Assembly (NCBI GenBank): GCA_019022495.1
Contig: JAFEKR010000037.1
Location: 1 to 64,000 of the forward strand
Reading direction: 5' to 3'
DNA length: 64,000 nucleotides
Source: Epichloe hybrida
Taxonomy: Eukaryota > Ascomycota > Sordariomycetes > Hypocreales > Clavicipitaceae
Every line of letters begins with the position of its first letter. Positions within the stretch are counted from its first letter, which is position 1. The position numbers and the translations under genes are program-made. Below, one piece after another: positions 832-5,120 of the stretch. A model generated the notes under the pieces. The model was not told where the DNA came from. It did not search any database and worked only from the letters and a program-made list of their open reading frames with translations.

Positions 832-1393
832 TCAGTTCTTTGTGCCGACCACGGAGATGTTCAGGGCTGTGAAGAAGGTCAGCATGGTGAGACAAAATCG
901 GTGTGAAAGGTTTGCCATGGTCGCAGGCTTTGTGCGACAAGCAAGAGGATAGTGGCGGATTGGGAGGGTGAGCACATACTGGGAGGCAGGCTCTGCTTCA
1001 ACTTCTCGGCCTTCTCCGTGTCTTTGAGCACCAGGGTGTAGAGGTGCTTCTGGCAGCGGACCTTGAACTTGATGTTGTTGGCCTGCTTGTTCTTCTTGAT
1101 CCGCGCGGCTGTTGACTTGTTAGATCGTTTGGTTCTCTTCCAATTTTGGGCTCAATCATGTTTATCCCCCCCGCCAATCCAGCCAGATCGACATCCGATG
1201 GGAATCGTGACGTGGGAGAGGGCCCGACTCGGTTTCCTGGGACAAGGTAGAACACATACACGAAGCGTCCTTGCGGCGGCAGATCTCGATGAACTAGAAA
1301 AAGTCAAAAAGTCAGCACTTGATGTAATTGAGTAGCAGAGCACGGACGCAGACGCGTAGTTACCTTCTTGATATCAGCGACCTCACGAGGCAT
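832..1393 (-). CDS. rpl38: 60S ribosomal protein L38 (eL38)
   Basis: Four exons on the minus strand (1364-1393, 1260-1293, 980-1108, 832-866) splice in frame to 75 residues. The product starts [20 protein letters not shown], then [10 protein letters not shown] and [20 protein letters not shown], with the family's KLKQSLPP near the end. The start is the only ATG that gives this conserved N-terminus. The protein is a small basic component of the large ribosomal subunit in the cytosol. All three introns have GTAACT/GTATGT donors and AG acceptors. The last exon is short ([11 protein letters not shown]). None of the introns shows snoRNA boxes. The family assignment rests on near-complete identity to the conserved L38 sequence pattern. 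Confidence 0.95.
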
Positions 1394-2121: not shown

Positions 2122-2179
2122 CCTAAGTTAGTACAGGGACACAAAGTTTAAATAGCAACAAAACTTAGTGTTGAAGGTG

Positions 2180-2270
2180 AAAAGTGTCAGGAGAAGGTGC
2201 CTTGTCACAGGCGTTGTCATCAATGCATATGGCTAAGTTGACCGTCGTGATATTTGTAACATCATATGAA
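2180..2270 (-). ncRNA. Probable C/D-box snoRNA in host intron 6
   Basis: A near-consensus C box ATGATGT lies at 2265-2259, a C'-like TGATGA at about 2223-2218 and a D box CTGA at 2190-2187. It is 42 nt after the GTAAGT donor at 2307. A TACTAAC branch point follows (2133-2127). Position and boxes fit the five other units, but the C box has one mismatch and I recognise no target. Confidence 0.5.
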
Positions 2271-2402
2271 TAGTGAGGTGATGAAGAACAAAGCTCAGAC
2301 AACTTACATAAAGGGTTCATTACAAGGGTGGTTCTGCCATTGTCTTTGGTCAAGTCAGCAAAATGCCATGCACAAGTATGGCACCAAAATATGGTGACGC
2401 CT

Positions 2403-2492
2403 TAGCAGTCAGAAAAAAATGCGGATGATTTGTCGTCGCCGCCGAAGCTCAGACATATGCTTGTCATTTTCATTCGCGTTCATCAGGCTGAG
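2403..2492 (-). ncRNA. snR74: U27/snR74-type C/D-box snoRNA (guide for 18S rRNA A28)
   Basis: The C box TGATGA lies at 2485-2480, D' CTGA at 2452-2449 and D CTGA at 2412-2409, with flanking bases able to form most of a terminal stem (CTCAGC against GCTAAG). The guide GACAAGCATATG (2465-2454) is complementary to the 18S 5' region CATATGCTTGTC. Counting five bases upstream from D' gives a T at 2457, which pairs with A28 in yeast 18S numbering. That is the known site of yeast snR74 and human U27. The block AATGACAAGCATATG plus CTGA is the conserved core of that family. It sits 39 nt after its intron donor. Confidence 0.92.
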
Positions 2493-2597
2493 GTTTGGCC
2501 GCTCATGGCGATGGAAGAACTAACCAGTAGGAAATCTGTTACTTGTCAGCCCGGAACAGATCGAGTAGTTCGTATCAACGTGAAAAGTGTATGTAAT

Positions 2598-2687
2598 CTT
2601 GTTCAGTGAAGCATGAATGGTATAAAAAAGATTAAATGTCTGCATCGAAAACTCGAATAAGACTCGTCATCTGTATCATCAGGAAGG
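2598..2687 (-). ncRNA. C/D-box snoRNA in host intron 4 with two 25S-complementary segments
   Basis: The C box TGATGA lies at 2681-2676 and the D box CTGA at 2606-2603, 43 nt after the donor at 2724. Two segments are complementary to nearby parts of 25S rRNA: 2672-2663 (target CTCGTCATCT) and 2620-2611 (target GCATGAATGG). In the rRNA these lie within the same conserved region. The first is reminiscent of the U15 family guide. The exact methylation site is not assigned because the D' box is degenerate. Confidence 0.72.
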
Positions 2688-2845
2688 CAGGAGGGATGGT
2701 GGTGTGTGAAGGGGAATGGCTTACTATTGACAAACTATGATGCATGCAGCACCACTACGTCGTAACACATCAATTCCAGACGCTGCTATTGGACACATGT
2801 CAGTTTTCTGCATGTACAGCCTTTGCAAAGTCAAGTGATAATGAT

Positions 2846-2945
2846 GCCGGATCAGTGGGCGAGGTTTTCTAGGCCTGCCGCAAATTGGCTTTTCTTGCTC
2901 ATAGTTTCTTTTTCTTCGGAGCCCAGTGCCGCTTCATCATATAAG
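2846..2945 (-). ncRNA. C/D-box snoRNA in host intron 3, target unknown
   Basis: A perfect C box ATGATGA lies at 2940-2934 and a D box CTGA at 2855-2852. It is 40 nt after the GTATGC donor at 2980 and upstream of a CTTGAC branch point and TACATGCAG acceptor ending at 2808. I could not recognise an rRNA or snRNA target for the sequence before the D box, so this is a candidate orphan. Confidence 0.65.
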
Positions 2946-3055
2946 GTTGGTGCAGGACGAGTGCATTCGTTCATGCATACCTTGTCTAAAAATCTTCATG
3001 GATGTTAGCATAAGCGTCTTCAACCAAAGCAACCATCAATGAAGAGTGAAGACGT

Positions 3056-3150
3056 GGTACAATCAGAAATAGCCATTAGATATCGTCAAAGAAAAAGATC
3101 TCAGCCGGTAATTTCCAGCGTATATTGATACGAAAATGATCATCAGGAAC
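3056..3150 (-). ncRNA. C/D-box snoRNA in host intron 2
   Basis: It has a full set of boxes: C (TGATGA, 3145-3140), D' (CTGA, 3104-3101), C' (TGACGAT, 3088-3082) and D (CTGA, 3066-3063). It lies 49 nt after the donor at 3194. The stretch 3126-3117 is complementary over 10 nt to the conserved 18S segment AGCGTATATT. A neighbouring stretch resembles the complement of the 18S GGTAATTCCAGC region with one extra base. Which of the two is the functional guide is uncertain. Confidence 0.75.
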
Positions 3151-3349
3151 CAGGCGGGGGCAATGTGTGTTTGAAGAGGGGCGGTGTCACATACCATTTA
3201 ATTGCGAGCTCGCGACAGGAACGCAGCTACAGGCATCCATTCGTTTGTTCACTTGAACTTCACTCACACCCTGTAAAATTCGAGGTTAGCACGACCAGCT
3301 CCGCTAGGTACAGTTGCAATGCTTGATTCTTGACAGTCAGAAGACAGCT

Positions 3350-3442
3350 TCTTTTCAGACTGACGTGTAAAAAAAAACAGAGTTTTCATTCCAAAAGAGG
3401 TCAAAGACTCTAGTTTGCGGTTTGATTGTGTCATCAGGAAGC
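3350..3442 (-). ncRNA. C/D-box snoRNA in host intron 1
   Basis: The C box TGATGA lies at 3436-3431 and a D box CTGA at 3358-3355. The RNA sits in the 3487-3271 intron, 51 nt after the donor. Minus-strand bases 3417-3406 are complementary over 12 nt (target GACTCTAGTTTG) to a conserved 25S/28S rRNA segment that I recall as reading TTGACTCTAGTTTGACATTG. The D' box is degenerate (TTGA at 3404-3401). I do not assign a named family. Confidence 0.7.
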
Positions 3443-3699
3443 GAGGATGGAAAGGAGATGCAAAGCTCAATTGCATTCGAAACTTACAATCTGCTCGGGA
3501 TGTTGGTGTGTGTATAAAGGAGCAAGAAATGGTGGAAGAGAAAATTGCTGGCGCGAACAAAATTGTCTTTCGTTGTGGAGAAGGCGGTGGAGTCGAGAGC
3601 TCCGGGTCACGTAAGCAGGTCACGGGGTTTCGTGTGAGTGGCGTGGCAGCACGTGAGATTCACTTTCACTCTCACCTCACTTGTCGCATGAAAACGAAG

Positions 3700-5120
3700 A
3701 TGCCCGAGATAGCAGAAGGTGCGGATAAACCTGCACTCATAATGGCGAGCTATTACTGACGGTCAATATAAGTCGCCCGTATCGTTCACTTTCTCCGCCT
3801 CCATTTGGTTGGCAAGAAGATCAAGGACGCATCTGCCATAGACGATGGCAATGTCTTTGGCAAGGTGGGAACCACAGGTGCGGCTGTTGAAGCTGCCTTG
3901 AAGGGGAAAAAAGTATGATGTAATAATGCTCTTGATGGAGAGTCCTCAATTTTTTTTTAATTTGCCACTGTGTTATTTCGTATGTAGCTTGATAAGCGTA
4001 CTTACAACCGCCACCAAACAGGTAGTCTCGGCAGGCAGTCAAGGAAAGTATTTCTGGTAAGACCCTCAAACCCCCTTGAAACATATAACGGTGCGCTCAT
4101 AGTACGCAGGATAACATTAGACAAACCTCCACACCTGGTCATGCATTTTGGAATGACAGGTGTGTGTGTTGCCGCTGCATTCAGATCGGCCCACGACCGC
4201 CCGTACTGACTCGAGCAGGATGGGTACACATCAAGGGCGAGAAGACAGCATACACAAACTACTACAAAAAGCTCAAAGAGAGTGACCTCGCTCAATGGCC
4301 CCCTAAATTCTGGAAATTTCGACTCACGACGGACGGCAAAGCCCCTGTAGAAGTCGCCTTCACAGACGCTCGGCGCTTCGGTCGAGTTCGGCTCGTCGAT
4401 TGCTCTGGCGTCGACATCCGAAAACACTCGCCTCTCATGGAGAATGGGCCAGACCCCGTCATCGATACGGATAGATTCACCGAGGACTACCTCCGCGGCA
4501 AGATGAAAAACCGCCACGTCCCCGTCAAGGCGCTCCTCCTTGACCAAGCTATGATAAGTGGCATAGGAAACTGGGTCGCCGATGAGACTCTGTATCAGGC
4601 GAAACTCCATCCGGAGCAGTACAGTGACAGCTTCAGCGATGCGGAAATCAAGAAGTTGTACGAAGCCATTCGATATGTTTGTCAAACAGCGGTGGACAAA
4701 TTAGGCGACTCGGATGAGTTCCCGGAGCACTGGTTATTCAATTACCGCTGGGGAAAAGGCGACAAGAAAGCTGCGACTCAACTTCCCAACGGGGTGAAGC
4801 TGTCATTTATTACCGTGGGCGGCCGAACAAGTTGCTTCGCTCCAGGCGTGCAGAAAAAGACTGGGAAAGTTGTACCTGACGCGAAAGCGGAGCCTGTCAA
4901 GGTCGAAGAAGAGAAGGAAAAGGAAGGAACGACAGTGAAGAAATCGCGCAAACAAAAGACGGAATCGAAAGGGGCTGCTGACCTTGACCAGCCGCCCACT
5001 AAAAAGAAACGCATGATTAAGGTGAGGAAGGAGGAGGGGGAGGAGTACAACAAACAAGATATTCAGCCAGATGTAGACTTGTCATCTGATAGGATACGAT
5101 CGGCTCGGCTTCAGAGATGA
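3700..5120 (+). CDS. Formamidopyrimidine-DNA glycosylase (Fpg/MutM family)
   Basis: Five exons (3700-3718, 3773-3912, 4022-4056, 4110-4159, 4219-5120) encode 381 residues. The N-terminus MPEIAEV supplies the catalytic Pro2 and Glu3 of bifunctional Fpg glycosylase/AP lyases. HFGMTGW follows, then a helix-two-turn-helix around residues 185-215 (MISGIGNWVADETL). In place of the bacterial zinc finger there is a GGRTSCFAP segment, the zincless-finger form of plant and fungal members. The C-terminal ~100 residues are Lys/Glu-rich with basic clusters (KKSRKQK, PTKKKRM) that look like nuclear localisation signals. The enzyme excises oxidised purines in base-excision repair. The first intron interrupts codon 7, so the unspliced frame dies early. 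It lies head-to-head with the snoRNA host gene. Confidence 0.93.

What the first reader, a model, noticed from the sequence alone, without database searches (positions are those of the whole stretch)
2122..3560. A non-coding snoRNA host gene: six consecutive introns, each with one C/D-box snoRNA
Seen directly: six GT-donor introns in a row on the minus strand, each with a C box 39-51 nt after the donor and a D box 70-90 nt later, and with CTAAC/CTGAC branch points. Known: intron-encoded C/D snoRNAs are excised by splicing and trimming, and this donor-to-C-box spacing is typical. Inference: the exons are non-coding and the gene exists to make snoRNAs, like vertebrate UHG. Protein-based annotation would leave this 1.4 kb empty.
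Basis: partly seen in the sequence, partly recalled or inferred. Interest (0 to 1): 0.82.

Follow-up and report, generated by a model that had tools for sequence, protein, structure and literature searches.

The report
Fungal intronic snoRNA cluster snR78-snR73
This stretch carries six small guide RNAs, each inside its own predicted intron of an apparently non-coding gene; it matches a gene cluster already described in many fungi that directs chemical marks on ribosomal RNA, so it is real but ordinary.

Summary
On the minus strand, 3487-2123, six predicted introns each hold one C/D-box snoRNA. The nested pattern (donor, box C, box D, branch point, acceptor) occurs six times here, nowhere else in the 64 kb, and at most twice in any of 2,000 shuffles of the locus. 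Rfam names three above its gathering score: Afu_300 (snR77-like), Afu_513 (snR76-like) and snR75. Three more score below it: snR78, SNORD27 (snR74) and snR73. Their order is that of the published fungal "snoRNA gene cluster I". The seventh member, snR72, appears fused into the first snoRNA (weak matches), a fusion published for Neurospora crassa and Euascomycetes. The same papers report the intronic layout, the non-coding UHG-like host and alternative splicing. So this is one more copy of a known gene. Minor details: predicted 5- and 11-nt exons, a tight last branch point, and a bulged A in the snR77 guide duplex. No transcript data and no relatives' DNA could be examined, and 26S rRNA pairing was not tested.

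The parts
3353..3441 (-). C/D snoRNA 1: snR78-type D' guide plus snR72-type D guide (probable fused snR78/72, like N. crassa CD5)
   Evidence: Rfam snR78 27.6 bits (gathering 48, E 0.015). snoZ122 21.1 bits (gathering 38, E 0.71) covers CACGUCAGUCUGA at the D guide; SNORD38 (21.7 bits, E 0.036) and DdR16 (20.2 bits, E 0.31) also match weakly here. C box 3436, D box 3358; GCUUC/GAAGC stem
3061..3150 (-). C/D snoRNA 2: Afu_300, snR77 homologue
   Evidence: Rfam RF01509 80.2 bits, gathering 40, E 1.1e-13; weaker snR77 match at the same place, 25.7 bits, gathering 50
2850..2944 (-). C/D snoRNA 3: Afu_513, snR76 homologue
   Evidence: Rfam RF01514 78.9 bits, gathering 48; snR76 38.6 bits at the same place, gathering 55
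2601..2684 (-). C/D snoRNA 4: snR75
   Evidence: Rfam RF01185 72.6 bits, gathering 40
2409..2491 (-). C/D snoRNA 5: snR74 / SNORD27
   Evidence: Rfam RF00086 30.4 bits, below gathering 52; 12-bp guide to an 18S rRNA at 25-36, placing D'+5 on A28
2185..2271 (-). C/D snoRNA 6: snR73
   Evidence: Rfam RF01207 33.1 bits, below gathering 37, E 0.0064
3271..3487 (-). predicted intron 1 (217 nt)
   Evidence: GTAAGT ... CTAAC ... TTACAG
2986..3194 (-). predicted intron 2 (209 nt)
   Evidence: GTATGT ... CTAAC ... TTTTAG
2783..2980 (-). predicted intron 3 (198 nt; acceptor may be 2786)
   Evidence: GTATGC ... CTGAC ... TAG/CAG
2536..2724 (-). predicted intron 4 (189 nt)
   Evidence: GTAAGC ... CTGAC ... 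TAACAG
2334..2524 (-). predicted intron 5 (191 nt)
   Evidence: GTTAGT ... CTGAC ... TGGCAG
2123..2307 (-). predicted intron 6 (185 nt; acceptor uncertain)
   Evidence: GTAAGT ... CTAAC ... CTTAG, only 5 nt after the branch A
3195..3270 (-). predicted exon 2 (76 nt)
   Evidence: between introns 1 and 2
2981..2985 (-). predicted exon 3 (5 nt)
   Evidence: between introns 2 and 3
2725..2782 (-). predicted exon 4 (58 nt)
   Evidence: between introns 3 and 4
2525..2535 (-). predicted exon 5 (11 nt)
   Evidence: between introns 4 and 5
2308..2333 (-). predicted exon 6 (26 nt)
   Evidence: between introns 5 and 6

Best explanation
This is the filamentous-ascomycete version of snoRNA gene cluster I (snR78/72-snR77-snR76-snR75-snR74-snR73). 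An apparently non-coding RNA polymerase II transcript is spliced; each excised intron is debranched and trimmed to one C/D snoRNA, which guides 2'-O-methylation of 18S or 26S rRNA. Shown here: snoRNA identities (three above the Rfam gathering score, three below it but in the expected order), intron signals, an 18S guide match for snR74, no long reading frame on the exon model. Inferred from work on relatives and general knowledge: transcription, splicing, debranching, trimming and the 26S target sites.
For: Rfam matches in the order of the published cluster. In N. crassa Table 1 the homologues CD5, CD24, CD12, CD7, CD21 and CD31 are all intronic and all on chromosome VI. The first snoRNA matches snR78 at D' and snoZ122 at D (both weak), as expected of the published snR78/72 double guide. 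Nested intron pattern 6 here against a shuffle maximum of 2 in 2,000. The snR74 D' guide pairs 12 bp with an 18S, with A28 at D'+5; maximum of 20 shuffles 8 bp. Donor-to-box C is 39-51 nt, against mainly 41-60 nt from 5' splice site to snoRNA in N. crassa.
Against: No transcript data. Three of six snoRNAs are below the gathering score. Only 1 of 12 guides tested against 18S beat all its shuffles (four of the six snoRNAs are expected to target 26S); the snR77 guide's longest run, 8 bp, is within chance (shuffle maximum 9) and needs a bulged A to extend. Convincing stems next to the boxes were not found for snoRNAs 3, 5 and 6. 26S pairing, exon conservation and synteny were not tested. The snoZ122 match ranks below SNORD38 and DdR16 by E-value.
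Confidence: 0.96

Rival explanations
1. An unspliced polycistronic snoRNA precursor processed by endonuclease cleavage, as in S. cerevisiae.
For: The same snoRNAs in S. cerevisiae come from unspliced primary transcripts.
Against: Donor, branch and acceptor signals flank all six snoRNAs at regular distances. Among the hairpin loops of 3-8 nt listed from one minimum-energy fold of each of the five spacers, none is a four-base loop with G at its second place, the loop type known (recalled) for yeast RNase III (no shuffles).
Confidence: 0.02
2. A short-protein gene whose introns happen to hold snoRNAs.
For: The exon model is not fixed and small reading frames exist. On unspliced DNA, the ORF listing gives a 119-aa frame with a GTG start (3264-3623, minus) and a 114-aa one with a TTG start (3415-3759, plus).
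Against: Both long frames lack an ATG start as listed and run across snoRNA or intron 1 sequence. Joined exons have stops in all three frames, with no complete ATG-started frame over 32 aa. Published hosts of these clusters lack long reading frames.
Confidence: 0.02
3. Chance motifs.
For: Boxes C and D alone occur elsewhere in the window.
Against: Three Rfam matches with E from 8e-13 to 1.6e-14 and the nested pattern test.
Confidence: 0.001

Closest known systems
Fungal snoRNA gene cluster I (PMC3596301, 2013) and the N. crassa cluster (PMC2780460, 2009)
   Same: Same snoRNAs in the same order, each in its own intron; fused snR78/72; host without a long reading frame. Introns joined without exons between them are reported for such clusters in Euascomycetes (cluster III is the example given).
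   Different: Different species; exon sizes could not be compared, since the figures are not held.
S. cerevisiae snR78-snR72 polycistron
   Same: Homologous snoRNAs in the same order.
   Different: Seven separate snoRNAs from an unspliced transcript there; here six, intronic.
Vertebrate UHG and gas5 snoRNA host genes
   Same: Works alike: non-coding host, one C/D snoRNA per intron. That SNORD27 (matched) is a UHG snoRNA is recalled.
   Different: Different snoRNA set overall; common descent of the host was not tested.

Membership tests
Box C/D snoRNA | Box C (RUGAUGA) near the 5' end and box D (CUGA) near the 3' end | tested here: met
   TGATGA in five and TGATGT in the sixth; CTGA in all six. 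The base before TGATG is C, not a purine, in four of six (snoRNAs 1, 2, 4, 5)
Box C/D snoRNA | Terminal stem bringing the boxes together | tested here: inconclusive
   5 bp close to the boxes for snoRNA 1, 4 bp for 2, 3 bp for 4; nothing convincing near the boxes for 3, 5, 6
Box C/D snoRNA | Guide complementary to rRNA with target at D/D'+5 | tested here: inconclusive
   Met for snR74 (18S A28, 12 bp); consistent with U578 for snR77 but the run is within chance; 26S targets not tested. The 18S used is that in L001, not this organism's
Fungal snoRNA cluster I, Euascomycete form | snR78/72, 77, 76, 75, 74, 73 in this order on one strand | tested here: met
   against the order in PMC3596301; three members are below the gathering score and the snR72 half rests on a weak match
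Fungal snoRNA cluster I, Euascomycete form | Each snoRNA within its own intron | tested here: met
   Predicted from splice signals only
Fungal snoRNA cluster I, Euascomycete form | Host lacks a long reading frame | tested here: met
   No complete ATG-started frame over 32 aa on the exon model, whose outer ends are arbitrary
Fungal snoRNA cluster I, Euascomycete form | Spliced host transcript detected | not testable with these tools
   No RNA data held

The most novel reading that the evidence does not exclude
The predicted 5-nt exon 3 (followed at once by GTATGC) and 11-nt exon 5 are too small for ordinary exon recognition, so introns 2-3 and 4-5 are removed stepwise or by recursive splicing, and skipping could link snoRNA output to splice choice. 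Published work already reports joined introns and exon skipping in such clusters, so this would be an extension.
Probability: 0.2. Interest if true: 0.3.

Novelty: new member of a known kind. Interest (0 to 1): 0.12.

Why it matters
It gives a correct annotation (six rRNA-methylation guides and their host gene) for a stretch without a long protein-coding gene, and it is one more example of an ancient, order-conserved snoRNA cluster. It opens no new question of principle.

Tried and rejected
Unspliced polycistron, small protein gene and chance were considered and set aside (see rivals). A seventh, separate snR72 after snR73 was looked for: one search lists no TGATG[AT] between 2222 and 2050 on the minus strand, and by reading I saw none from there to 1500. 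Folding exon 2 gave nothing unusual (z -0.80).

Literature: searches (one search found no paper). Read: PMC2780460, passages and section 3 part 1; PMC3596301, passages, outline, section 4 part 1 and section 8; PMC12309372, passages. By their titles, none of the 15 listed of 1,060 papers is about this cluster in Fusarium; of the 10 listed of 28, the only one I know to treat this cluster is PMC3596301. One search, aimed at Hypocreales, failed on a search term and was not repeated. So I do not claim that the cluster is unpublished for this group.

Full report
Observation. The minus strand from 3487 to 2123 holds six intron-like units, each with one C/D-box snoRNA. Donor-to-box C distances are 51, 49, 41, 43, 39 and 43 nt; box C start to box D end is 77-88 nt; D box to branch A is 52-69 nt. 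A first pattern count found 5 non-overlapping units in the window, all here (2,000 Markov sequences, maximum 1). It merged neighbours. A second count, per box C with donor upstream and D box, branch point and acceptor downstream, gave 6 on the minus strand of the whole window, all here, and 0 on the plus strand; 2,000 dinucleotide shuffles of the locus gave mean 0.0035, maximum 2. Limits were fitted after seeing the data. Boxes C and D alone are weak evidence (18 matches on both strands, 6 of them in this locus).

Identity. In the 64 kb scanned at gathering scores, Rfam reports 3 matches, all here: Afu_300, Afu_513 and snR75. Scanned at E up to 10 over 3 kb, 14 matches are listed. Below the gathering scores are snR78 (27.6 bits against 48), SNORD27 (30.4 against 52) and snR73 (33.1 against 37), plus snR76 on Afu_513 and snR77 on Afu_300. 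In transcript order this is snR78, snR77, snR76, snR75, SNORD27/snR74, snR73. Table 1 of PMC2780460 equates U27 with snR74. The other six matches (SNORD38, DdR16, ceN28, SNOR75, Entero_5_CRE, SgrS) are weak and are not taken as meaningful.

The first snoRNA. Scanned alone, 3300-3500 gives 6 matches, all below gathering score: snR78 (E 0.015), SNORD38 (0.036), DdR16 (0.31), snoZ122 (0.71), ceN44 (2.6), TUG1_2 (3). The snR78 alignment covers CAAACUAGAGU before D'. The snoZ122 alignment covers UUUACACGUCAGUCUGA at D, with one letter different from that part of the consensus. N. [quoted passage not shown] That snoZ122 is the plant counterpart of snR72 is recalled, not from a call. I found no separate snR72 after snR73.

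Guides. Against an 18S rRNA from L001, 1 of 12 typed guides beats all of its 20 shuffles: the snR74 D' guide, 12 bp at 25-36, placing A28 at D'+5, the site listed for N. crassa CD21. The snR77 D' guide has an 8-bp run at 575-582, which puts U578 at D'+5 but is within chance. By hand, five further pairs follow after a bulged A, and the Afu_300 consensus keeps that A. Table 1 lists 18S Um575 for the N. crassa homologue CD24; that this is the same site is my reading. The snR73 D' guide's 8-bp run equals its shuffle maximum. Large-subunit targets could not be tested.

Host gene. Predicted internal exons are 76, 5, 58, 11 and 26 nt. Joined, with arbitrary outer ends, they have stops in all frames and no complete ATG-started frame over 32 aa. 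Unspliced DNA holds a 119-aa GTG-started frame (minus) and a 114-aa TTG-started one (plus), both running over snoRNA or intron 1 sequence. The 5- and 11-nt exons may be skipped or mark stepwise splicing. PMC3596301 describes introns without intervening exons in Euascomycetes, with cluster III as its example. PMC2780460 found transcripts of N. crassa cluster I lacking exon 2 or exons 2 and 3. That its cluster I is the snR78 cluster is likely, because its cluster III has the same members as cluster III of the other paper, but I could not see the figure. The intron 6 acceptor as drawn is only 5 nt from the branch A, so the true acceptor may lie further on.

Mechanism. Most likely the transcript is spliced, the introns are debranched and trimmed, and the snoRNAs guide rRNA 2'-O-methylation. 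Identity and intron signals are shown; expression, splicing and methylation are inferred.

Novelty. The cluster, its order, the intronic layout, the fusion, the non-coding host and the comparison with UHG and gas5 are in print. It is a new member of a known kind and of low interest.

Noticed in passing
window 969-1109 (-): Part of a ribosomal protein eL38 gene (Pfam Ribosomal_L38e, E 6.1e-21) lies downstream of the host gene on the same strand.
   Followed up: partly
window 4164-5120 (+): A formamidopyrimidine-DNA glycosylase-like reading frame (Pfam H2TH, E 5.8e-22) lies divergently upstream of the host gene.
   Followed up: partly
window 3061-3150 (-): The snR77-type guide carries an extra A relative to the 18S target, giving a bulged duplex; the Afu_300 consensus has it too (pairing beyond the bulge read by hand).
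   Followed up: partly
L001 2050-4963: A contig titled as a Planomonospora parontospora genome record holds eukaryotic rDNA (18S, 5.8S and the start of the large-subunit gene), so it looks like contamination.
   Followed up: partly
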